Source of the DNA: a virus
Length of the DNA: 23,690 bases
Direction: 5' to 3' (one strand)
Virus record (IMG/VR): IMGVR_UViG_3300046524_000309
Location: 1 to 23,690 of that record
Part shown: piece by piece, positions 4,383-22,131 of the stretch
Layout: each line of letters starts with the position of its first letter
Numbering within the stretch: position 1 is the first letter of the stretch
The notes under the pieces: generated by a model
What the model was told of the DNA's origin: nothing
Databases searched by the model: none
Seen by the model: only the letters and a program-made list of their open reading frames with translations
Translations under genes and position numbers: made by a program

Positions 4383-5533
4383 CGTCTTGCTCCTGTAGCG
4401 GAATGGGATTTACCTGTGTGGGCAGCTTGGCGGGCCGACCAGATAGATGGCTGATCAATTTTCTTGGCTTGCACCTTAGGTGCCGGGTCATCGTCCAGTG
4501 GTAGGCTGTTGTCGATTTCAAAGCCTTTGCCGCTGGTAACGATCTTGTCGAACAGACGCGCCCGGACCGCCGCCGCATCCAGCCCTGCCGCGACATACTC
4601 GGCGCTGAATTCGGGCAGACGCGCGGCCACGCAGAGGTCGTTCACCGCCTTGGCGCGTGCTAGGCCGGCGAGAACGATTTCCTCGCTTTCGAGCTGGGTG
4701 GAATTGAGCAGCGGCTCAATCAGGTTGCTGATGCCCGCCGCCGTGCAGCGCTGAGTAATCATCAATGCCAACTTGGCCGAGTCCACTACAGGCGCCACCT
4801 GCGGCGGATCGACAGGTTCGAGTTCGGGATCCGGTTCAGGTGGCTCGTCGAGCTGGGCCACCAACTCAGCCGGAGCGTGCTGGAATCGTTGCAACACCGC
4901 GCCTTGACCGAGGCATGCTTTGACTTTGATGCCGTCCCCAACTTCGTCTGCAAGTCCAAGAGCCACTGCTTCGTTGGCAGTCAGCCAGGTTTCAGCATCA
5001 ACCATTCGCCGCAACTCGGCGTCATCAATGTCCGGCGCCTTGGCCTTATAGGCCGCGATGATCGCCTCCAAGGTTTGATCCAATACATCAGCGACCCGTC
5101 GAAAGTCCTCAGCGCCACCGCCTGCATAGGTGTATGGGTTGTGAATCATCAACATGGCGTTCGCCGCAATTACTACGCGGTGTGCACCGCACACGGCGAC
5201 ACTCGCGGCACTGGCAGCAAGCGCATCGATACGTCCGGTGCAACGCTCGCCCAAACGCGACAGCGCGTTGTGCATGGCCAGTCCGTCGAACAGGTCGCCG
5301 CCGATGCTGTTGAACGCGGCCACCACCGGAGACACGCCATCATCCATGGCGCGCAGATCCTGCACGAATTGATTGGCAGTGATGCCCCACGCGCCGATCT
5401 CGCCATAGACGAAAACCTCGATCACCCGCTCGGTGGCCTCTCCGCTGGCCTGCAGGGCGTACCAGGTCTTATCCTGAACTTCGACGCGTTTGCCTGCGCG
5501 GTTGTAAATGCGCGGTCGCGCTTGTTTGCTCAT
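4379..5533 (-). CDS. Head maturation protease, ClpP-type (S14 family), with C-terminal scaffold-like region
   Basis: The product has 384 residues. Residues 38-200 look like ClpP: NSIGGDLFDGLAMHNAL (about 75-91), catalytic Ser108 in DALAASAASV, His131 in MLMIHNPYTYAGGG, and the block AETWLTANEAVALGLADEV (180-198). The usual catalytic Asp position in that last block aligns with Glu181, with Asp179 two residues away, so the acidic member of the triad is uncertain. Residues 215-245 are Pro/Glu/Asp-rich, followed by a helical region to the end that could serve as scaffold, as in lambda gpC/Nu3. It cleaves the scaffold and portal during head assembly. The start overlaps the portal stop by four bases. 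Confidence 0.9.
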   Translation of the reverse strand: MSKQARPRIYNRAGKRVEVQDKTWYALQASGEATERVIEVFVYGEIGAWGITANQFVQDLRAMDDGVSPVVAAFNSIGGDLFDGLAMHNALSRLGERCTGRIDALAASAASVAVCGAHRVVIAANAMLMIHNPYTYAGGGAEDFRRVADVLDQTLEAIIAAYKAKAPDIDDAELRRMVDAETWLTANEAVALGLADEVGDGIKVKACLGQGAVLQRFQHAPAELVAQLDEPPEPDPELEPVDPPQVAPVVDSAKLALMITQRCTAAGISNLIEPLLNSTQLESEEIVLAGLARAKAVNDLCVAARLPEFSAEYVAAGLDAAAVRARLFDKIVTSGKGFEIDNSLPLDDDPAPKVQAKKIDQPSIWSARQAAHTGKSHSATGARR

Positions 5534-7011
5534 GGTTGCTCCTTGTCGTCAGTGTCTTCGACGGCATAAAGGGTGTTGTAGTTGAGGCCCAGTTCTGTAG
5601 CCCGTGCCAGATCGGCAGCGTTTTCCAGATCGACCGTTTCGGAGTCGTAGCCGGTGCGCAGCACCATCTCGCTGCGAGAAGAGAACCCGGCCTGTACCTC
5701 CATCCGGCGTGCCTGCACGTCCTGTACTGGCTGGATGTAGGCCCAGCCTTGTGGCACCCATCGAGTGCGCAGGTACTGGCGGCGTTTCTGTGCGTAATCG
5801 TCCAGCACCAGAACGCCAGACAGCACCGCCATGTCCATCCACGCCGCTCGGACCGGGCGGCAGAGTTGATGCACGTACACGCTGAATTGCAGTTGTTCCA
5901 GGCGGCGCCGAAACTCGTTGAGCACCACCCGCAGTGCTCGGTCGTTGATCCCGCGCATGTCACCAGTGAGGATCTCGTAAGGCGTGCCCGACCCCGCTGC
6001 AGCAGCCATCAGTTGTTGCCGCATGAAGTCCGGGTAGTTGTTGCCGGCGTCTGGTGGTTTGGAGAACTCAACCTCCTCTCCCGCGCCCAGTTCCTGCATG
6101 GTGCCGGGTTCGAGCGCGACCATCGGGGTGAATCCGTCGCGATCCAGATCCAGCAAGGCGCCGGTAACTGGATCGCGTGGCGCTTGCCCCGACTCCGGTG
6201 CCGGACGCTTGATGAAACCGGCAAAAAGGTTGGCCACTTCCTGACGGAACAGCACCGCGTCGTCGTAGTTGTCGAGACTGCGTAGACGCTTGAGCACCGG
6301 CGACAATCGCGGCACACCGCGCAACTGGCCCGGTTCCACCGGTTCGAAGATGTGCAGCACCTGAGCCGCCGGCACGCGGACCAGCTGGTTGTAGCCGGCG
6401 TTCAGCGAGGCTGCATCGCGCGGATGCGACAGGTACATCCAGTACGCCACCCGCTTGCCGCCCGGGGTGAACTCGATGCCGGCGCGGATGACGTTGCCGT
6501 TTTTGGTGCTCTCGAATTTGTCGTGCGGCACGAATTCCGGCGCCAAGATTTGCAGCTGCAGCGGAACCGCCAAACCTTCGTCCAAACTGCGAGGACGCAA
6601 CCGGACGAAGCACTCGCCCGATGTTTCCACCGTGCGCGCCACCAGCGCCTGCTGGCCGTAAAAGTCGGTGCGATCATCCGCATCAGACTCATCGACCCAA
6701 TCGCACCAGAGTTCCTGCAGCAGCTTGCGCAAAGCATCATCGTCGGTTGTCGGCCGAGGCGTTATACCGGTGCCGATCAGGTTGCTGACGCGCTTGTCGA
6801 TGACATTGAAGGCGTAGGGGTCGTTGCGAACCGCCGCCCGCGAGCGCGACCGCAGATTGCGCAGGGCGGGAGTGTTGATGCTGTTGATCCCGTTGTCGGG
6901 AGCGTCCCAGCCAGTAGAGCGGCGCCCTTCTCCAGCGCCTTCGTAACTGGCCTTGATGTTGGACGGCAGGACAAATCCGTTGCGGGTCAGCGTTGGGAAG
7001 TGTCGGGCCAT
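5530..7011 (-). CDS. Portal protein, lambda gpB family
   Basis: The product has 493 residues (lambda gpB has 533). Recognisable blocks are TPALRNLRSRSRAAVRNDPYAFNVIDKRVSNLIGTGITPRP near the N-terminus, ETSGECFVRLRPR, IEFTPGGKRVAYWMYLSHP, LHIFEPVEPGQLRGVPRLSPVLKRL and GTPYEILTGDMRGINDRALRVVLNEFRRRLE. These are hallmark segments of lambda-type portals. The protein forms the dodecameric ring through which terminase drives DNA and to which the neck binds. The ATG at 7011 shares one base with the stop of the connector gene (TGATG). The reading frame is intact across its full length. Confidence 0.95.
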   Translation of the reverse strand: MARHFPTLTRNGFVLPSNIKASYEGAGEGRRSTGWDAPDNGINSINTPALRNLRSRSRAAVRNDPYAFNVIDKRVSNLIGTGITPRPTTDDDALRKLLQELWCDWVDESDADDRTDFYGQQALVARTVETSGECFVRLRPRSLDEGLAVPLQLQILAPEFVPHDKFESTKNGNVIRAGIEFTPGGKRVAYWMYLSHPRDAASLNAGYNQLVRVPAAQVLHIFEPVEPGQLRGVPRLSPVLKRLRSLDNYDDAVLFRQEVANLFAGFIKRPAPESGQAPRDPVTGALLDLDRDGFTPMVALEPGTMQELGAGEEVEFSKPPDAGNNYPDFMRQQLMAAAAGSGTPYEILTGDMRGINDRALRVVLNEFRRRLEQLQFSVYVHQLCRPVRAAWMDMAVLSGVLVLDDYAQKRRQYLRTRWVPQGWAYIQPVQDVQARRMEVQAGFSSRSEMVLRTGYDSETVDLENAADLARATELGLNYNTLYAVEDTDDKEQP

Positions 7012-14785: not shown

Positions 14786-14859
14786 ATCAACTTGCGGTTG
14801 ATGTTATAGATCAACTGACTATTGCGCAACCTTTATGAGACTCTCAACTCATGGTTGAT
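14786..14859. promoter_or_regulatory. Repressor operators between cro and cI (17-bp dyads)
   Basis: O1 at 14786-14802 is a perfect dyad, ATCAAC-TTGCG-GTTGAT. O2 at 14810-14826 keeps only the left half, ATCAAC. O3 at 14843-14859, cTCAAC-TCATG-GTTGAT, has one mismatch and covers the ATG of the repressor gene. O1 and O2 start 24 bases apart. The same 17-bp dyad with the same 24-base spacing recurs at 16899-16939. The layout suggests that the repressor blocks cro and that O3 occupancy limits its own expression. Confidence 0.8.
14803..14829 (-). promoter_or_regulatory. Candidate promoter for the leftward early (cro) operon
   Basis: On the minus strand, TATAAC (14808-14803) is a good -10 element between operators O1 and O2. 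TTGCGC (14829-14824) is 15 bases upstream, a shorter spacing than ideal. Repressor on O1 or O2 would cover this promoter. The -10 is better supported than the -35. I could not settle on a promoter for the repressor gene. Confidence 0.45.
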
Positions 14860-15582
14860 AAAAATACTCTCCGCGCAGCTTTTAGCGAGCGCCTAAACGA
14901 AGCACTTGACGATGCTGGTGTACGCAGCCGTGGTCGTGGTGTGGATATCCATCGTCAGTTGAAAAATTTTGGAGTCGATAAGACCACCCAGGCCATCAGC
15001 AAGTGGCTTAATGGAGAAGCGATTCCCGAAGCAGACAGCATGACTGCACTCTGCGTCTGGCTCAAAGTACGTCGCGAGTGGCTGGAGTATGGAGTTGTAC
15101 CAAAGGCACAGACTGGTGAGAGCAACGTTCTTCCGTTATCCGGCGGGGACGCAGCCAATGTCCGGGAAATTAACCAGCGGTTCGGGAGAGTTCCGCTCAT
15201 ATCTTGGGTACAGGCCGGAGCTTGGTGTGAAGCGATATCGAACTTCGAGGCCTACGACGCAGACTCATGGTTATCCTGCCCTGTTTCGATCAGTAAGCAT
15301 GGATATGCATTAAAGGTTCTTGGAGACTCCATGACAAATCCGGGACCAGGCCGCAGCTATCCCACAGGGTGCATTATATTTGTTGATCCTGATGCTGAAA
15401 CAAAGATGGGGGATCGTGTTATCGCACGAGTACCGCGAACAAATGAAGCTACATTTAAAGTTTTAGCAGAAGATGCCGGCACGCAATTTTTGAAGCCGAT
15501 CAACCCTCAGTATCCGATTATTGAAATAACAGAAGAAACGCATATTTGCGGAAAAGTTGTTGGATCATTCATACCCGAATAA
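14851..15582 (+). CDS. CI-type repressor with LexA-like S24 self-cleavage domain
   Basis: The product has 243 residues. Residues 5-80 are a helix-turn-helix (VDIHRQLKNFGVDKTTQAISKWLNGEAIPEADSMTALCVWLKV). The C-terminal part is an S24 peptidase: cleavage site Ala122-Gly123 in SWVQAGAW, nucleophile Ser160 in LKVLGDSMTNP, and general base Lys203 in EATFKVL. It should keep the prophage silent and cleave itself when RecA is activated by DNA damage, so induction is SOS-dependent. The start ATG lies inside operator O3. No good ribosome site is visible upstream, so leaderless or weak translation is possible. The next gene is convergent, 30 bases away, without a visible terminator. Confidence 0.93.
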   Translation: MVDKNTLRAAFSERLNEALDDAGVRSRGRGVDIHRQLKNFGVDKTTQAISKWLNGEAIPEADSMTALCVWLKVRREWLEYGVVPKAQTGESNVLPLSGGDAANVREINQRFGRVPLISWVQAGAWCEAISNFEAYDADSWLSCPVSISKHGYALKVLGDSMTNPGPGRSYPTGCIIFVDPDAETKMGDRVIARVPRTNEATFKVLAEDAGTQFLKPINPQYPIIEITEETHICGKVVGSFIPE

Positions 15583-15612
15583 TCCAACAATGCAAAGCCG
15601 ATACAATATCAG

Positions 15613-16779
15613 TTAGCCGATGATAGCGAAGTTTCCACCAGCACGCCGAACCAAAGTAGGCTGCTGGTCTTCTTCCAGGTACTGCTCCAGCGTCGTACCA
15701 ATTAAACGCACTTCTCGTGACCTCCCCATTTCTGGGTCTTCCAAAAGCGCATCCGTGATTGCAGCACGTATGTCTGGTGTGGTTCTCAAAAACAGGGCCC
15801 AGTCAGCCCTCAAGTTCTCATAATGTCTGCGAGGAAAACGACAACGGTAGAATGTACCATCTTCAACAATTAGGTATACCAACCCTCTAAAAGTGCCATC
15901 GACATCCTCCGAAAATTTAACTTCTACGATTTTAGCCTCCAGAAGCAGTTCTTCCCACTTCAGCTCTGAAAGTAAGGCCCTACGATGATCTTCCATATTC
16001 AAAGTGGAAACGAAACTGATCAAATGCCTAAACTGGATTGCACCCTTTGCGATATCCCTCAAATTGCGCTCTGAGATAGAAGCTAGAACAACCGCCTTTA
16101 AATCATCCAACCTTTCAGAAAAGTCTTGATAGCGCTTCGACTCTAATGCTCGAGTGCGATTTTCAGAAAGCAGCCTTTGAAATAAAAATGACCACTGAGA
16201 AACAAGATGATTCTTTATATCATCAAGCCTGGCGAAAGGTGTAATGCTATTATTTTGCACTCGGTGAGTTAAATAATTTATAAACTCAAAAATATACTTT
16301 GCGGTTTCTGACTTCTGAATAGAAGGAAATTTTATCTGCTCGATAACGGCCTGATTATCCTTGTTTTTTTCGTAAACAAGATGATCATGATAAACCTTCT
16401 CATCCACAAAAGCATATATAGGTATCGAGTGCTCGATAGCTTTTAGAACTTCCAGCTGAGTGATCGATAGATTTGTATGCTCCGTCAAAATCCCGTTACT
16501 TGAACTGGTTTTAGCTAGCGCTTCAAAATCGAATCCCTCCAACGCAGCGGGAGTGGCAGTACCGCCAAACCTTTGGCCCAAAACAAGAAGCAAAACATCG
16601 CAATTGGGGACTTCTTTGATACAGCTATCATGAGTGTGTGATCGCGGATCGTACAAAATATCCGAATAATCACTCATAATAGGCTCGTACCCCATATTGA
16701 CAATAAAGGGCCTGAGCTCGGATCTAATGACCCCAAGATCAAAACAGGTTGACGACACGAAGATTCTTGGCTTTGCCAC
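15613..16779 (-). CDS. Stand-alone DUF4062 protein, AT-rich cargo gene (candidate exclusion/defence factor)
   Basis: The product has 388 residues. The N-terminal 120 residues match DUF4062: PRIFVSSTCFDLGVIRSELRPFI, then GYEPIMSDYSDILYDP, DSCIKEVPNCDVLLLVLGQRFGG and LSITQLEVLKAIEHSIPIYAFV. This domain has a TIR-like outline and often sits at the front of large NTPase defence proteins, but here there is no NTPase. Residues 150-260 are charged and helical. The last 90 residues are a strand-rich unknown part (FRGLVYLIVEDGTFYRCRFPRRHYENL). The start is GTG at 16779 with AGGGA nine bases upstream. By hand count 16201-16380 is about one third G+C, far below its neighbours, a sign of separate origin. 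No function is known to me, and the exclusion role is inferred from its position beside the repressor. Confidence 0.85.
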   Translation of the reverse strand: MAKPRIFVSSTCFDLGVIRSELRPFIVNMGYEPIMSDYSDILYDPRSHTHDSCIKEVPNCDVLLLVLGQRFGGTATPAALEGFDFEALAKTSSSNGILTEHTNLSITQLEVLKAIEHSIPIYAFVDEKVYHDHLVYEKNKDNQAVIEQIKFPSIQKSETAKYIFEFINYLTHRVQNNSITPFARLDDIKNHLVSQWSFLFQRLLSENRTRALESKRYQDFSERLDDLKAVVLASISERNLRDIAKGAIQFRHLISFVSTLNMEDHRRALLSELKWEELLLEAKIVEVKFSEDVDGTFRGLVYLIVEDGTFYRCRFPRRHYENLRADWALFLRTTPDIRAAITDALLEDPEMGRSREVRLIGTTLEQYLEEDQQPTLVRRAGGNFAIIG

Positions 16780-16898
16780 TCTTTTATTTCCCTATCAATA
16801 ATTGTTATCAACTTCACAATGCAGAGCAGCCTGTGGCCATCATTATCACATCATAAATCTCACGTTTCTGGACAGCAAATTCATACGCAGCCGAAAAC

Positions 16899-16942
16899 AT
16901 CAACCATTGGTTGTTGACACAAACCAACCATTGGTTGATATT
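16899..16942 (+). promoter_or_regulatory. Repressor-controlled promoter of the rightward early operon
   Basis: TTGACA (16914-16919) and GATATT (16937-16942) are separated by exactly 17 bases, a strong -35 with a fair -10. Two operators overlap it: ATCAAC-CATTG-GTTGTT at 16899-16915 and ACCAAC-CATTG-GTTGAT at 16923-16939, each one mismatch from the cro-cI dyad consensus. Repressor binding would cover both promoter elements. The first gene starts 35 bases downstream of the -10. Confidence 0.8.
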
Positions 16943-16977: not shown

Positions 16978-17154
16978 ATGCACACCACAGCAACCCTGCA
17001 CGTCCACCCGGCCGCCGCCAACCCCTTCCAAATCTTTGAGATCCGGCGCCTAGCCCGCGAGCACGGCTGCGCGTTCGCCATCAGCAAACCGAAGCTGACA
17101 GTGCGCACCACTCCTGCCCCATTCAATCCGAACGGCGGAGGGCATGCAGCATGA
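16978..17154 (+). CDS. Small phage protein, first gene of the rightward early operon
   Basis: The product has 58 residues. I do not recognise it. The ATG at 16978 is supported by GAGCGAGG seven to fourteen bases upstream, and the longer frame to 16942 would start inside the promoter. The middle part, FQIFEIRRLAREHGCAFAISKPKLTVRTT, could fold as helix-strand and is weakly basic. It overlaps the next gene by four bases (ATGA), so the two are coupled. Being first after a repressor-controlled promoter, it is expected to be made early on induction. Confidence 0.7.
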   Translation: MHTTATLHVHPAAANPFQIFEIRRLAREHGCAFAISKPKLTVRTTPAPFNPNGGGHAA

Positions 17155-17741
17155 TCAAGTACAAAATTGACAACCGCACCTTGCAGCTGCTCAATGCCCA
17201 GGTCAACCTGACCGAGACCTTCAACCACATCCTGCGGACTGCGCCTAGGCGCGAGTGCCTGGCGTTTCGCCTCAAGGTTGAACGTGGCATCTCGGAAAGC
17301 ACCTTCGTCGTGGAGCTGGGCAGCGAACGCCACACGCTGACCCTACCGAACGAAAAGAAGATGCATCTCAAGCTGGCAGACTTCATTGAGGAGATCGCCA
17401 ACGGCCCGTTCGACGCGAGCAATACCAGCGACCTGCTGCATCGTCCCCACGCCAGCCGCGAATACGGCCGCTTCGAGGTATCGGATAAGCAGCGGGTGTT
17501 CGAGCTGGTGCGCACCGGCGGCGTGCTGAGCCTCGACATGGGCTTCGACTACCCACTCCAGGTTGCGCTGCACCGCACTCAATCGCGCTCAGGCGTCACC
17601 ACCATCCTTAGCATCGGTAACAAAAGCCCGCACACCCGGTGCTTCACCGTGTACGGCAGCGATGCAGAGATCTACGTCAAGGTAAGCGAGTCCATCAACC
17701 ATCTTGCTGCTGCGGCCACCCCAGCCGCGCACGCGGCATGA
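17151..17741 (+). CDS. Phage early protein of unknown function
   Basis: The product has 196 residues. It starts MIKYKIDNRTLQLLNAQVNLTETFNHIL and is mostly alternating strands and charged loops (LAFRLKVERGISESTFVVELGSERHTLTLPNEKKMHLKLADFIEEI, then REYGRFEVSDKQRVFELVRTGGVLSLDMGF). The C-terminus is Ala-rich. There is no signal peptide, membrane segment or catalytic motif I can name. The ATG at 17151 has GGAGG nine bases upstream and overlaps the preceding stop. The codon use and high G+C match the rest of the phage. Confidence 0.8.
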   Translation: MIKYKIDNRTLQLLNAQVNLTETFNHILRTAPRRECLAFRLKVERGISESTFVVELGSERHTLTLPNEKKMHLKLADFIEEIANGPFDASNTSDLLHRPHASREYGRFEVSDKQRVFELVRTGGVLSLDMGFDYPLQVALHRTQSRSGVTTILSIGNKSPHTRCFTVYGSDAEIYVKVSESINHLAAAATPAAHAA

Positions 17742-18036: not shown

Positions 18037-18202
18037 GGAATACGCACGCCAGATCATTGCCATGCGGACACGAGAGGAGCGCAACGCCGCGCTCCTCGAA
18101 GTGCCCGAACATCTGCGCGAGCTGACCAAACGCCACTGCCTGAACGCCTGGAATCACCCGGCCAGAAAACAACGCAAGGAGGCCCAACAAAGCCATGAGT
18201 AA
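18023..18202 (+). CDS. Small conserved phage protein (59 residues)
   Basis: The frame opens with GTG at 18023 inside the end of the KilAC-like gene and reads MTWPREYARQIIAMRTREER, then NAALLEVPEHLRELTKRHCLNAWNHPARKQRKEAQQSHE. The WP-x-EYA and VPEHLRELT-x-RH blocks are familiar from small proteins repeatedly annotated in Pseudomonas phages and prophages. I do not know a function. An alternative start is the ATG at 18062. The last codons overlap the ATG of the PrtN-like gene by eight bases, and the ribosome site of that gene (AAGGAGG) lies inside this frame. The charged, helical composition suggests a soluble protein. Confidence 0.6.
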   Translation: MTWPREYARQIIAMRTREERNAALLEVPEHLRELTKRHCLNAWNHPARKQRKEAQQSHE

Positions 18203-18512
18203 CACAGCACAAAACCCGCTACGCCTGCACCCGGCACCGGAGTCAGCCACCGTCGAATTGCTTTACCGCATCTTCGGCGACGTCCTGATACCGCTCGATA
18301 AAGTGCGTGAGCAGTACTTCCGCAACCTCAACGAGCAGTCTTTCGTCGCCGAGATCAGCAGCGGCCGCATCCAGCTCCCCATCACCACGCTGGACACCAG
18401 CCGCAAGGCACCGAAGTACGCACACATCCGGCACGTCGCCTCCCTGATCGACATCCGCGCCTACAAGGCCGACGAAGACATGCAGCGACAGCAGGACGAC
18501 ACCAACGAGTAA
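18195..18512 (+). CDS. PrtN-family pyocin activator protein, copy 1
   Basis: The product has 105 residues. After a 17-residue leader, VELLYRIFGDVLIPLDKVREQYFRNLNEQSFVAEISSGRIQLPITTLDTSRKAPKYAHIRHVASLIDIRAYKADED follows the PrtN family pattern (IPL-x4-EYF, then PI-x5-S-x-KAP and an IDxRA helix). PrtN of P. aeruginosa activates pyocin genes after DNA damage. In a prophage it could activate late genes or another resident element. The ATG at 18195 has AAGGAGG eleven to seventeen bases upstream. A second family member closes the same operon at 19617-19892. The two differ clearly, so this is not a recent duplication. Confidence 0.75.
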   Translation: MSNTAQNPLRLHPAPESATVELLYRIFGDVLIPLDKVREQYFRNLNEQSFVAEISSGRIQLPITTLDTSRKAPKYAHIRHVASLIDIRAYKADEDMQRQQDDTNE

Positions 18513-18988: not shown

Positions 18989-19620
18989 GCGAGATCATTA
19001 CCCACTCCAACACCCACCGCGACACGGCATACGCCTCATTAGCGGCGGACGAACCAACCCGCAATCGAACCTCGGAGGAAAGCGGCATGCAAATGGACCA
19101 GCACAACACCCAATCCAAGACCGCTTTGCTCTGCGAAGCAGTGAGCGTCGACACGCCAGAAACAAACAGCCTCTGCTGCGCAGCAGCAGGCATTATTGCC
19201 CCTTCCTGCAGCACCACCGAGGCGCTTATACCCCACGAAAAGCTGCGCGAGGCAGCCACACCCAATGCAACGCTAACCGCTCAGAATCGCCCGCCCGCGC
19301 AGCCTGCTGTGGGGTGTACGCACCCTGAATGCATTCTCGAAAGACCGATAAGGATGGCCATCGACGTAGTCCAGATCGACGAGCGCGCCGAGTTCGAGAA
19401 AGAGTTTCCAATACCTGAAGGCCTGCAGTACTGCAAAAAGCGCGTGACGTACATTAGGACACGAGCAGCAAGTACATCTGACACGTTCGCCCGCGAGCAT
19501 TACGCCTATAAAGCGGGTTTCGCAGCATGGATGCGTCGGTCGTGGAAGCAGGCAGCGCTGGAGTGGTCGAAAAACAGCAGAGAACAACAGGATCAACCCG
19601 CACCCCAGGAGAAAAAATGA
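18985..19620 (+). CDS. Phage early protein of unknown function
   Basis: The product has 211 residues. The first 120 residues are low in predicted structure, with several Cys (LCCAAAG, CTHPEC) and many Thr/Ser/Pro. The C-terminal part (about 125-200) looks folded: DVVQIDERAEFEKEFPIPEGLQYCKKRVTYI, then EHYAYKAGFAAWMRRSWKQAALEW, resembling the C-terminal part of assorted small phage proteins that carry a YxAGFxAW motif. I cannot assign a function. The ATG overlaps the previous stop and its own stop overlaps the last gene of the operon (ATGA), so the whole set is translationally coupled. Confidence 0.7.
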   Translation: MSEIITHSNTHRDTAYASLAADEPTRNRTSEESGMQMDQHNTQSKTALLCEAVSVDTPETNSLCCAAAGIIAPSCSTTEALIPHEKLREAATPNATLTAQNRPPAQPAVGCTHPECILERPIRMAIDVVQIDERAEFEKEFPIPEGLQYCKKRVTYIRTRAASTSDTFAREHYAYKAGFAAWMRRSWKQAALEWSKNSREQQDQPAPQEKK

Positions 19621-19892
19621 ACACTGCTTTCATCCTGATGGCTCAGTACAACGGCCAGGCGATCATCCCATTGGACATGGTCTGTAAGGACTACTTTACG
19701 CACCTGACCACCGATATGTTCCAGCGCAAGGTCATGGCCGGGCAGATCAAAATCCCAATCACCAGGCTGGAGCCGAGTCAGAAAAGCGCCAAAGGTATCC
19801 ACATCACTGATCTGGCGGCCTACCTTGATCTGCAACGGGAAGCTGCGGTGAAAGAATTCAACCAGCTCAACGGATACCGCCGAGCCAGTTAA
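19617..19892 (+). CDS. PrtN-family pyocin activator protein, copy 2
   Basis: The product has 91 residues and is the clearer PrtN homologue: MNTAFILMAQYNGQAIIPLD at the start, then VCKDYFTHLTTDMFQRKVMAGQIKIPITRLEPSQKSAKGIHITDLAAYLDLQREAAVKEFNQL. The SQKSAKGIH-x-DLA block is diagnostic. The ATG at 19617 has AGGAG about six bases upstream and overlaps the previous stop. The gene ends one base before the stop of the convergent integrase, so transcripts of the two would collide or pair at their ends. As an SOS-linked activator family within a repressor-controlled operon, it is a likely regulator of late phage or pyocin genes. Confidence 0.88.
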   Translation: MNTAFILMAQYNGQAIIPLDMVCKDYFTHLTTDMFQRKVMAGQIKIPITRLEPSQKSAKGIHITDLAAYLDLQREAAVKEFNQLNGYRRAS

Positions 19893-19893
19893 C

Positions 19894-21018
19894 TCACTGC
19901 TTACCCCAGGCGCCCAGCTTCACGGGCGCCTGAATGATCCTCTCTAACCACGGCCATTCGGCATAGTGGTCACCTCGCCCGCGCAGATGGGTGTATCTAC
20001 GCAATGAATTCCAATCCCGATGCCCGGAAACACTGGCCACTCGCGGGATATCCCAGTCCATTTCAAATAACCGGCTCACACCGTCGTGCCGCAGATCGTG
20101 GAAGTGCAGATCTTCAACCATCAGAAACTTGCACGCCTTTGCCCAAGCAGTGGCGATCGATGACGAGTTGTAGGGGAAAATCTCTGCACGCTCCTTTGGC
20201 ATGCTCTTCAGAATGCGCCAAGCTTCATCCGGGAGGTGACACCAAACATCGTTGCCAATCTTTTGGCCTGGATTCTTCATGTCCCGCACCATCACCCGAT
20301 GACGCTCTTCATCGACGTCCTCCCAAAGCATTCGACCGATCTCGTCTTGCCTACGAGTGGAGAACAATGCGAAGCCGGTGACTTTGAGCATGTTGATCGA
20401 ACTAGGGCGACGCTGCTGAATACCTAAAAAGTGCTCCAGCACCTTATCCAGCTCGTCCTTGGTTGGCCGCCGATCTCGCTCGCGGCTTTTCATGTTGTAA
20501 CCGAGCTTCCTCAACACCTTCCGAGCGTCCGACATCGCGTGAGGGTCTACCTCATACCCCCAAGCGGGACGCGCAATCGAAAGGACAGCCCCAAGGTGCG
20601 CCAGATCGTTGCCAGCCGTCTGCGGCTGGACGCCGCCACCCTCTTTACTCATTCGCCAGAGTGCAAAATCCACCAATCGTTGACTGTTGATAGCCGAATC
20701 AACGGTCTGGCCAAACTCCGTCGCCGCAATAGCATTTAGGGTGGATTCCTTAGTTTTACCCAACGGCCGGACTTTCTCCATTTCATCCAGGTACTGCTTG
20801 ATCATGTCCTGTACGGTGACGCCCTTGCGGTTCGCCCGCTCAATCGCACCAGGCTGATCTAGCTCTGCCTCACGTCGCCGCACCCACGCTTGTGCCGCCT
20901 GTTTCCGGGCGAAGGTCTGGCTCTCTTGGTAGACTTGCGCTCCATCGCGAAACAGGCGTATCTGTGCCGTGTAACTGACTGAGCCATCGGTGCGTTTTCG
21001 TGCTCTGATCGTAGCCAT
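19894..21018 (-). CDS. int: Tyrosine integrase of the dusA-targeting type
   Basis: The product has 374 residues from the ATG at 21018. Longer in-frame starts at 21054 and 21120 enter the promoter and dusA. The N-terminus MATIRARKRTDGSVSYTAQIRLFRDG is the arm-binding domain. The catalytic domain carries Arg223 (FSTRRQDEIGR), Lys248, His307-x-x-Arg310 (HFHDLRHDG), His333 (SGHRDW) and the nucleophile Tyr342 (LRRYTHL). It recombines attP with a site at the 5' end of dusA, as inferred from position and the known dusA-associated integrase family. It is transcribed away from dusA, from a probable extended -10 promoter at 21053-21061. No excisionase gene is evident, although one of the small early proteins might serve. 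Confidence 0.93.
   Translation of the reverse strand: MATIRARKRTDGSVSYTAQIRLFRDGAQVYQESQTFARKQAAQAWVRRREAELDQPGAIERANRKGVTVQDMIKQYLDEMEKVRPLGKTKESTLNAIAATEFGQTVDSAINSQRLVDFALWRMSKEGGGVQPQTAGNDLAHLGAVLSIARPAWGYEVDPHAMSDARKVLRKLGYNMKSRERDRRPTKDELDKVLEHFLGIQQRRPSSINMLKVTGFALFSTRRQDEIGRMLWEDVDEERHRVMVRDMKNPGQKIGNDVWCHLPDEAWRILKSMPKERAEIFPYNSSSIATAWAKACKFLMVEDLHFHDLRHDGVSRLFEMDWDIPRVASVSGHRDWNSLRRYTHLRGRGDHYAEWPWLERIIQAPVKLGAWGKQ
19907..19932. other. Perfect 9-bp inverted repeat at the convergent ends of prtN-like and int genes
   Basis: CAGGCGCCC (19907-19915) and GGGCGCCTG (19924-19932) flank an eight-base loop. It lies inside the last codons of the integrase gene and just past the PrtN-like stop. 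Neither strand shows a T-run, so it is not a standard terminator, but the hairpin could stabilise or separate the two converging transcripts. Confidence 0.5.
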
Positions 21019-21025
21019 AGTCGAC

Positions 21026-21061
21026 TGGTACAACTCCGAAAGTGATTGGTACATTGTACCA
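21026..21061 (-). promoter_or_regulatory. Integrase promoter with TGGTACA repeats
   Basis: TGGTACA is found at 21026 and 21047 (21 bases apart), inverted at 21055-21061, and as the palindrome TGGTACCA at 21122-21129. On the minus strand TGGTACAAT (21061-21053) is an extended -10 element. The repeats thus overlap the promoter and reach into the first codons of dusA. They are candidates for integrase arm sites or for int autoregulation. Confidence 0.5.
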
Positions 21062-21120
21062 GCGCCATCGAAAAAACGCCTGAAAACGCCTAAAAACACG
21101 CTATAAATACGTTGAGCCAA

Positions 21121-22131
21121 ATGGTACCAAACAACCGCTCCAAGCCAGTAAACTCAAGCCCTGCGCTATCTCGGCGGTTTTCCGTTGCGCCTATGATGGA
21201 TTGGACTGACCGCCATTGCCGTTTCTTCCTACGCCTCCTGTCGAAGAACGCCCTGCTCTACACCGAAATGGTCACCACCGGCGCGCTGCTCAACGGCGAT
21301 CACGAGCGTTTCCTCCGTCACAACGAAGCCGAGCACCCTCTCGCCTTGCAGCTCGGCGGTAGCGTTCCGTTGGACTTGGCCGCCTGCGCCCGCATGGCCC
21401 AGGAACACGGCTACGACGAGGTAAACCTAAACGTCGGCTGCCCAAGCGATCGTGTGCAAAACAACATGATCGGCGCCTGCCTGATGGGGCACCCGCAACT
21501 GGTGGCGGACTGTGTAAAGGCAATGCGTGATGCGGTATCGATTCCAGTAACGGTAAAGCACCGCATCGGCATCAACGGTCGGGACAGTTACGAGGAGTTG
21601 TGTGATTTCGTCGGCACAGTGCGCGATGCCGGGTGTACGAGTTTTACCGTGCATGCGCGGATTGCGATTCTGGAGGGGTTGTCGCCGAAGGAGAATCGCG
21701 ACATTCCGCCGTTGCGCTATGACGTGGCGGCGCAGCTGAAGGCGGATTTTCCGGAGTTGGAGATTGTGCTGAATGGCGGGATCAAGACGATGGAGGCTTG
21801 CCATGAGCATTTGCAGACGTTCGACGGTGTGATGTTGGGGCGTGAGGCTTATCACAATCCGTATTTGCTGGCGGAGGTGGATCAGCAGTTGTTTGGCAGT
21901 TCGGCGCCGGTGATCAGTCGGGCTGAGGCGTTGGCGCAGTTGCGTCCTTATATAGCCGAGCATTTGCAGGCCGGTGGGGCGATGCATCACATCACGCGGC
22001 ATGTGCTGGGCCTAGGCACGGGGTTCCCGGGGGCGCGGAAATTCCGTCAGTTGTTGTCGGTGGATATTCACAAGGCCAAGGATCCGCTGGCGTTGCTGGA
22101 TCAGGCGGCTGAGTTGCTTGAAGGTCGTTGA
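21121..22131 (+). CDS. dusA: tRNA-dihydrouridine(20/20a) synthase DusA
   Basis: The product has 336 residues from the ATG at 21121. A TTG at 21112 is an alternative. It is an FMN flavoenzyme that reduces uridine 20/20a in the D-loop of tRNAs. Seen in order: FSVAPMMDWTDRHCRFFLRLL (20-40), LQLGGSVP, catalytic Cys107 in NLNVGCPSDRVQNNMIGACLMG, VKHRIGING, FTVHARIAILEGLSPKENRDIPPLRYD and the phosphate-binding LNGGIKT. It is full length. The first 17 or so residues (MVPNNRSKPVNSSPALS) are probably encoded by phage DNA, which would also supply the promoter and ribosome site. A TATAAA at 21102-21107 is a possible -10, but no good -35 or Shine-Dalgarno site is visible. Confidence 0.96.
   Translation: MVPNNRSKPVNSSPALSRRFSVAPMMDWTDRHCRFFLRLLSKNALLYTEMVTTGALLNGDHERFLRHNEAEHPLALQLGGSVPLDLAACARMAQEHGYDEVNLNVGCPSDRVQNNMIGACLMGHPQLVADCVKAMRDAVSIPVTVKHRIGINGRDSYEELCDFVGTVRDAGCTSFTVHARIAILEGLSPKENRDIPPLRYDVAAQLKADFPELEIVLNGGIKTMEACHEHLQTFDGVMLGREAYHNPYLLAEVDQQLFGSSAPVISRAEALAQLRPYIAEHLQAGGAMHHITRHVLGLGTGFPGARKFRQLLSVDIHKAKDPLALLDQAAELLEGR
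21171..21215. other. Probable attR core within the 5' end of dusA
   Basis: The segment encodes the conserved DusA N-terminal block SRRFSVAPMMDWTD, which is the usual target of dusA-specific integrases. Upstream of it the DNA carries integrase-region repeats, and downstream it is host dusA. The matching left copy is outside the window, so the core length and cut sites are not seen. Confidence 0.45.

What the first reader, a model, noticed from the sequence alone, without database searches (positions are those of the whole stretch)
15613..16779. AT-rich stand-alone DUF4062 gene in the lysogeny region: candidate undescribed exclusion or defence factor
Seen: a 388-residue protein with an N-terminal DUF4062 domain, a helical middle and a strand-rich C-terminus with no domain I recognise. 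The gene is oriented against the repressor and the second early operon, and its DNA is about one third G+C over 16201-16380 against a GC-rich background. Known: DUF4062 is usually the sensor or effector front of large NTPase defence proteins, and genes beside a phage repressor often act in the lysogen, as lambda rexAB does. Inferred: this is a cargo gene expressed from the prophage, where the NTPase has been replaced by a different C-terminal sensor.
Basis: partly seen in the sequence, partly recalled or inferred. Interest (0 to 1): 0.8.

Follow-up and report, generated by a model that had tools for sequence, protein, structure and literature searches.

The report
Prophage TIR-like NADase in defence slot
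A virus dormant in Pseudomonas-type bacteria carries, beside its master repressor, a gene for a probable NAD-destroying suicide enzyme that would stop rival viruses; it is one of dozens of interchangeable defence genes that related viruses carry in the same spot.

Summary
A 388-aa DUF4062 gene lies on the minus strand (16779 to 15613), tail-to-tail with cI and divergent from the second early operon, and is AT-rich (43% G+C against 59%).

A May 2026 preprint shows that DUF4062 is a TIR-like NADase and that a DUF4062 protein (Swarozyc, KpSwz) is an abortive-infection defence. Here the predicted fold is TIR-like. E110 aligns with the active-site Glu of KpSwz-like proteins and is invariant in 39 homologues. 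A long helical stalk leads to a confidently modelled C-terminal domain with no significant match among solved structures; it is unlike Swarozyc's in sequence and diverges fastest.

The stronger evidence is the location. In 91 distinct intervals from the same Pseudomonas prophage group, the space between cI and the CI operators is a cargo slot: about 280 bp when empty (8), 0.9-4.6 kb and 43% G+C when filled (83). At least 45 filled slots match PADLOC families (Septu, PARIS-like, Lamassu, CBASS, DRT5, retron RT, SIR2 and others), 54 with NACHT and DUF4062; 0 of 10 phage core genes do. The slot recurs in whole Pseudomonas genomes.

Best reading: interchangeable prophage defence cargo that aborts infection by NAD+ depletion. 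Neither NADase activity nor defence was tested.

The parts
15613..16779 (-). DUF4062 gene, 388 aa, GTG start; predicted TIR-like NADase effector with stalk and C-terminal sensor
   Evidence: homologues; model
16264..16779 (-). residues 1-172: TIR-like domain (Pfam DUF4062 covers only 5-74), with a long SDYSDILYDPRSHTHDSC loop
   Evidence: (RPS4, SARM1 TIR and nucleoside deoxyribosyltransferases among the top fold matches)
16450..16452 (-). codon of E110, putative catalytic glutamate in S105-I-T-Q-L-E110
   Evidence: invariant in 39 homologues; aligned with E83 of a KpSwz-like protein, which fits KpSwz E97 (PMC13174449)
16069..16263 (-). residues 173-237: long helical stalk (helix 185-236 in the model)
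15616..16068 (-). residues 238-388: C-terminal domain, candidate sensor; fastest-diverging part, no significant fold match
16850..16878 (-). promoter-like TTGCTG-17-TATGAT reading into the gene; TATGAT and TTGnTn kept in both related phages although the flanks diverge
   Evidence: read from the alignment; below the scan threshold
15583..16898 (.). cargo slot from cI stop to CI operators; 276-288 bp cI-to-next-gene interval in empty relatives
14851..15582 (+). CI-type repressor (S24 peptidase domain), left border of the slot
16899..16915 (.). CI operator-like palindrome ATCAACCATTGGTTGTT, right border of the slot
16923..16939 (.). second CI operator-like palindrome ACCAACCATTGGTTGAT
16914..16942 (+). 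TTGACA-17-GATATT early promoter of the divergent operon, inside the operator pair
17151..17741 (+). conserved gene of the second early operon (phrog_15582), used as right anchor of the slot survey
19894..21120 (-). tyrosine integrase at the dusA end of the prophage
21112..22131 (+). dihydrouridine synthase (dusA-type) gene next to the integrase
   Evidence: dusA prophages PMC4482086

Best explanation
The gene is interchangeable antiphage cargo of a dusA-integrated Pseudomonas-type prophage. Its product would be a latent TIR-like NADase. In the lysogen it would be made from its own promoter while CI shuts off the divergent early operon beside it. The C-terminal domain would sense a component or effect of a rival phage, the helical stalk would couple sensing to oligomerisation of the N-terminal domains, and the activated domain (E110) would hydrolyse NAD+, stopping growth or killing the infected cell before new phage is released. 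Shown by sequence: gene, conservation, TIR-like predicted fold, conserved Glu, slot, defence company. Inferred: expression, NADase activity, trigger, abortive infection.
For: DUF4062 match. Fold search of the model puts TIR domains (RPS4 4c6r E 2.2e-3, prob 1.00; SARM1) and NDTs among the top hits. Profile alignment to KpSwz-like proteins: prob 97.1, E 5e-11, residues 2-128, with E110 opposite the Glu that corresponds to the catalytic Glu. KpSwz shown to be an abortive-infection NADase that needs E97 and its auxiliary domain (PMC13174449). Modular design: the same front carries a receiver-like C-terminus in L038/L040/L042 and an extra C-terminal tail in L028/L033/L037; the C-terminal part is 64-71% identical among the three phages against 85-92% for the rest. 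Location: 83 distinct filled slots, G+C 0.433 against 0.578, 105 of 114 ORFs converging on cI (binomial p 7e-22), 45 with PADLOC matches at E <= 1e-8 (54 with NACHT and DUF4062) and 0 of 10 phage core genes. Replicated in whole Pseudomonas genomes: 11 filled, 1 empty of 12 readable.
Against: No biochemical or plaque data. Fold-search E-values are modest (none below 1e-3). The C-terminal domain resembles nothing of known sensing function. 29 of 83 filled slots carry no match to a defence family; some may be non-defence cargo, so location alone is not proof. The 40 cargo families scanned were chosen as promising. NWD1, NWD2 and NPHP3 carry DUF4062 but showed no NADase activity (PMC13174449), so the domain alone does not guarantee it. 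The promoter is weak by consensus.
Confidence: 0.72

Rival explanations
1. It is a Swarozyc proper: the C-terminal domain is a divergent KpSwz auxiliary domain that grips the portal of infecting phages and so activates the NADase.
For: Same order of parts and similar size (388 aa against 326 aa for KpSwz); mixed alpha/beta C-terminal domain; front aligns.
Against: No alignment beyond residue 128. KpSwz profile match ends at residue 77. No fold match for the C-terminal domain, though the KpSwz structures did not appear in that library's results, so the folds were not compared. Its own phage encodes a portal (5530-7011), which a portal sensor would have to spare at induction.
Confidence: 0.15
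2. It is a defence factor, but the TIR-like domain makes a signal nucleotide or acts on nucleosides like its NDT relatives, rather than emptying the NAD+ pool.
For: Fold neighbours include nucleoside 2-deoxyribosyltransferases; some TIR domains make signals (PMC13174449).
Against: The gene stands alone in its slot, with no receiver effector beside it in the window or in L001/L002; [quoted passage not shown]
Confidence: 0.1
3. It is a lysogeny or host-fitness gene (regulator, stress or addiction factor) with no role against phages.
For: Position in the immunity region; 29 of 83 filled slots have no defence match; Fic, HipA and other non-defence families occur among chromosomal neighbours.
Against: The domain is an experimentally shown antiphage effector; most occupants of the slot match defence families; empty relatives (276-288 bp) show that cargo is dispensable for the lysogeny genes.
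Confidence: 0.1
4. It is a decaying passenger gene without function.
For: Some chromosomal homologues are broken (L039, L043).
Against: Intact in all three phages, dN about 0.15-0.20 with dS saturated, invariant active-site residues, promoter-like site kept.
Confidence: 0.03

Closest known systems
Swarozyc / KpSwz (DUF4062 TIR-like NADase, PMC13174449; PDB 10wc, 11cq, 11cv)
   Same: N-terminal DUF4062 domain with the S..T..E motif, helical stalk, small C-terminal domain, no NTPase, stand-alone gene in mobile or defence context
   Different: C-terminal domain not alignable; longer loops in the TIR-like domain (residues 36-53 and 77-104); carried by a prophage next to cI; activity and trigger untested
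lambda rexAB and BstA at the cI to N region of lambdoid phages (PMC8585504; P. putida RexAB PMC12894663)
   Same: accessory gene in the interval between repressor gene and the operator/promoter of the second early operon
   Different: transcribed towards cI from its own promoter-like site rather than from the cI promoter; unrelated proteins; dozens of alternative occupants
Prophage defence hotspots of P2/P4, K139-like Vibrionaceae and Bacillus phages (PMC9122126)
   Same: 1-5 kb of fast-turnover, mainly defence cargo between two conserved phage genes
   Different: different phage group (dusA-integrated, lambda-type portal, Pseudomonas) and different anchors (cI stop and CI operators)
STAND/NACHT proteins with DUF4062 front (TEP1, NWD1, NPHP3)
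   Same: DUF4062 domain
   Different: no NTPase or repeat sensor here

Membership tests
DUF4062 (PF13271) TIR-like family | match to the family profile above its curated cut-off | tested here: met
   56.2 bits against 24.7, residues 5-74
DUF4062 (PF13271) TIR-like family | TIR-like flavodoxin-type fold | tested here: met
   AlphaFold2 model, mean pLDDT 82; TIR domains and NDTs among the top Foldseek hits, prob 1.00 for several, but E >= 2e-3
DUF4062 (PF13271) TIR-like family | catalytic Glu in helix alpha-C | tested here: met
   E110 invariant in 39 sequences, aligned with the KpSwz-type Glu
Swarozyc defence system | C-terminal HTH/winged auxiliary domain with portal-binding hairpin | tested here: inconclusive
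   no sequence or profile alignment beyond residue 128; fold not compared, since no KpSwz entry appeared in the Foldseek results
Swarozyc defence system | NAD+ hydrolysis dependent on the active-site Glu | not testable with these tools
   needs purified protein
Swarozyc defence system | activation by phage portal, abortive infection | not testable with these tools
   needs phage assays and escapers
STAND/NLR defence proteins with DUF4062 | NTPase domain behind the effector | tested here: not met
   Pfam finds only DUF4062 above its cut-off; AAA_lid_1 is below; the model has a helical stalk instead
Prophage defence hotspot (sense of PMC9122126) | 1-5 kb locus of high turnover between two conserved phage genes | tested here: met
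   83 distinct filled intervals, 0.94-4.6 kb, median 1.7 kb, and 8 empty ones; replicated in whole genomes
Prophage defence hotspot (sense of PMC9122126) | occupants enriched in defence genes | tested here: met
   45-54 of 83 intervals with a match; 0 of 10 core genes
Prophage defence hotspot (sense of PMC9122126) | occupants shown to block phages | not testable with these tools
   no assay
lambda rex-type genes | location between cI and the operator of the second early operon | tested here: met
lambda rex-type genes | co-transcription with cI | tested here: not met
   gene runs opposite to cI
dusA-integrated prophages (PMC4482086) | integrase beside the 5' end of dusA, PrtN-like genes | tested here: met
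   integrase 19894-21120, Dus gene 21112-22131, two PrtN-like genes; att repeats not examined

The most novel reading that the evidence does not exclude
The C-terminal domain is a sensor fold not yet seen in any defence protein and recognises a phage component other than the portal. Its slot, between cI and the CI operators of dusA-type Pseudomonas prophages, is an undescribed plug-in defence site whose unmatched occupants (for example the HIT-domain + membrane-protein pair and the DUF2806 proteins) are new antiphage systems.
Probability: 0.35. Interest if true: 0.75.

Novelty: new variant of a known kind. Interest (0 to 1): 0.58.

Why it matters
It moves a just-described NADase defence family into a temperate phage and pairs the effector with a sensor domain that resembles nothing solved, so a new trigger could be mapped with one cloned gene. 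The slot matters more. It is short, has sharp, easily found borders, is carried by a prophage group whose anchor gene occurs in about 15% of sampled Pseudomonas species (29 of 199), and mainly holds defence genes, including roughly 30 protein families with no match found here. That gives a ready list of candidate antiphage genes and a test bed for how prophages swap immunity.

Tried and rejected
Single-sequence scans found no homologue in genome contigs and only two in viral contigs; the alignment query was needed. The two 'Acinetobacter phage' hits lie in contigs of bacterial genes and are not evidence for phage carriage. A direct PDB sequence search found nothing; only profiles touched KpSwz (E 0.067 with A1, 0.49 with A5). 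Considered and rejected: gene as artefact (conserved, purifying selection), NTPase remnant (none), co-transcription with cI (opposite strand), CI operator over the gene's own promoter (operators start 20 bp upstream of the -35). No tRNA and no Rfam family in the window. A search for the name of the new system found no paper, probably because the name carries an accent. A search for an earlier description of this Pseudomonas slot found none, but subscription papers and preprints are largely missing.

Full report
Observation. The open reading frame 16779 to 15613 (minus strand, GTG start, 388 aa) is real. Its only Pfam domain above cut-off is DUF4062, residues 5-74, E 3.9e-15; it has no match in PADLOC of 2023. 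G+C is 0.431 for the gene, 0.328 over 16201-16380 and 0.592 outside the lysogeny region. The record is a 23,690-base virus record holding head genes (GpA terminase, lambda-family portal, Clp protease), a VapE-type primase, a CII-like gene, cI, the gene in question, a second early operon with two PrtN-like genes, an integrase and, beyond it, a dihydrouridine synthase and BacA. Integrase beside dus with PrtN-like genes fits the dusA-integrated prophages of PMC4482086.

Control region. Two palindromes, ATCAACCATTGGTTGTT (16899-16915) and ACCAACCATTGGTTGAT (16923-16939), enclose a TTGACA-17-GATATT promoter reading into the second early operon; a similar site lies at the start of cI. These are very likely CI operators. 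The layout, cI then cargo then operator/promoter of the second early operon, is that of lambda cI-rexAB-OL. In lambdoid phages the cI to N interval is a recognised hotspot of mosaic diversity and the site of rexAB and BstA (PMC8585504). Here the cargo faces cI instead of following it. Upstream of the gene, TTGCTG-17-TATGAT (16878-16850) is matched by TTGnTn-17/18-TATGAT in two related phages although the flanks differ. It does not overlap the operators, so expression in the lysogen is plausible but unproven.

Homologues. Two IMG/VR phages (L001, L002) carry the gene at the same place with 79-80% identity. dN is 0.15-0.20 with dS saturated, so the protein is under purifying selection; between L001 and L002 the gene is far more diverged than the primase gene nearby (75% against 96% identity), which suggests exchange of alleles. 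An alignment-based scan gave 80 chromosomal loci, about 30 of them full-length relatives in Proteobacteria, Bacteroidota, Bacillota, Planctomycetes, Verrucomicrobia and others. Most are more AT-rich than their surroundings. In 399 Pseudomonas genomes only four have a DUF4062 match at E <= 1e-15. Two are full-length; three of the four were examined and lie beside an integrase, a Vsr/methylase/recombinase group and an IS element. Among 108 neighbours of 34 homologues, phage integrase is the commonest Pfam family and several defence families occur.

What the protein is. AlphaFold2 on 35 homologues (mean pLDDT 82) gives an alpha/beta N-terminal domain, a helix of about 50 residues (185-236) and a C-terminal domain. 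Foldseek puts TIR domains (RPS4, SARM1) and nucleoside deoxyribosyltransferases among the top hits, with prob 1.00 for several but E-values of only 2e-3 and up. The preprint PMC13174449 reports that DUF4062 is a TIR-like NADase related to TIR and NDT domains; that a Klebsiella DUF4062 protein (KpSwz) depletes NAD+ and aborts infection; that this needs E97 and a C-terminal HTH/winged auxiliary domain; and that the phage portal is the trigger. The PDB copy holds KpSwz as 10wc, 11cq and 11cv. I gathered four KpSwz-like plasmid proteins and compared profiles: probability 97.1, E 5e-11, residues 2-128, with S105-I-T-Q-L-E110 opposite S-Y-T-E-K-E83. E83 would be E97 of KpSwz if the published construct starts at residue 15; I could not read the KpSwz sequence itself, so that step is inference. 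E110 is invariant in 39 homologues. Beyond residue 128 nothing aligns.

The C-terminal domain. Modelled alone it is confident (pLDDT 90, pTM 0.81), yet it has no significant match in the PDB (best E 0.96) or among viral models (best 0.05, KTSC). It is the fastest-changing part: 64-71% identity among the three phages, against 85-88% for the TIR-like domain and 92% for the stalk, and 30% against 59% and 47% to the wider family. Relatives keep the front and change the rear: three Clostridia-type proteins carry a receiver-like sequence there and three alphaproteobacterial ones an added tail. A constant effector with a variable sensor fits this best (inference).

The slot. I collected relatives of the flanking gene (phrog_15582) and of cI from IMG/VR. 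In 120 loci with both anchors (91 distinct intervals) the interval is 276-288 bp in 8 and 940-4,586 bp (median 1.7 kb) in 83. Filled slots average 0.433 G+C against 0.578 for the rest. Of 114 cargo ORFs of 100 aa or more, 105 converge on cI (binomial p 7e-22). Homology to the window ends at or just before the CI operators in most loci, and at the cI stop on the other side, so cargo brings its own promoter. The ORFs form about 60 families. I scanned 40 against PADLOC; 25 match at E <= 1e-8: PtuA/PtuB (Septu), AriA/AriB-like (PARIS), LmuA/LmuB (Lamassu), CBASS cyclase with 2TM effector, DRT5, a retron reverse transcriptase, two SIR2 families, PD-T7-3, AbiC- and AbiTii-like proteins and several PADLOC candidates. 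Another is a NACHT protein. By interval, 45 of 83 have a PADLOC match, 51 with NACHT and 54 with DUF4062; none of 10 core genes of the window has one. The scanned families were chosen as promising, so 25 of 40 is not an unbiased rate, whereas 45 of 83 is a lower bound per interval. DUF4062 fills three slots.

Independent check. The anchor gene occurs in 29 of 199 sampled Pseudomonas genomes. Of 20 regions fetched, 12 also held a related cI; 11 slots were filled with families seen before (Lamassu, NACHT, SIR2, DUF2971, DUF2806 and others) and one was empty at 286 bp. The hotspot is therefore not a peculiarity of IMG/VR contigs.

Interpretation. Structure, active site, relatives and location agree on a prophage-borne abortive-infection NADase (0.72). 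The trigger is open. A portal sensor like KpSwz is possible, but the rear domain gives no support and the phage would have to spare its own portal. Filing it as Swarozyc would be premature: the auxiliary domain was not matched, its fold could not be compared, and activity is untested. 'Works like Swarozyc' is the better claim.

Novelty. Domain activity, prophage defence hotspots (PMC9122126 describes P2/P4, a Vibrionaceae cI-integrase site and a Bacillus site) and the rex position are known. New here are the C-terminal domain, the DUF4062 effector in this phage slot, and the slot itself in dusA-type Pseudomonas prophages, for which I found no description in the library; absence there is weak evidence. 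P. putida prophage P1, with RexAB downstream of its CI-like repressor (PMC12894663), may be a related case; I did not test that.

Noticed in passing
L094:3400-4663, L195, L196, L296: HIT-domain protein plus a small membrane protein recur as a two-gene cargo in the slot with no defence match: candidate new system.
   Followed up: partly
L240:5739-6935, L090, L098, L121, L129, L291, L293: DUF2806 proteins are a frequent single-gene cargo of the slot, unmatched in PADLOC.
   Followed up: partly
L106:2687-4603; L186:5759-7534; L093:3401-4711: Other slot cargo with no Pfam match in the proteins scanned (a lipoprotein-like gene with a protease-like partner, a 591-aa protein, a 436-aa protein).
   Followed up: no
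L038, L040, L042 (C-terminal part of the DUF4062 gene): DUF4062 + stalk fused to a receiver-like sequence (ILWVDDYPINNE...DLIITDMG) in gut Clostridia; would couple a TIR-like NADase to a two-component signal.
   Followed up: no
L260:2486-3829: A P2-like prophage region in a Salmonella record carries a 447-aa DUF4062 gene between a virion morphogenesis and a baseplate gene: a second, unrelated prophage location for the family.
   Followed up: no
L004, L005: Public 'Acinetobacter phage MD-2021a' contigs hold ordinary bacterial metabolic genes around the DUF4062 homologue, so the label looks wrong.
   Followed up: no
window 18195-18512 and 19527-19892: Two PrtN/excisionase-like genes in one operon (E 1.8e-28 and 1e-30), possibly a duplicated excision regulator.
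   Followed up: no
L039, L043: Chromosomal DUF4062 homologues with broken frames, showing loss of the gene.
   Followed up: no
L138, L152, L166, L167, L233, L234, L246, L248, L307: Empty slots of 276-288 bp; useful as the ancestral or vacant state of the cargo site.
   Followed up: partly
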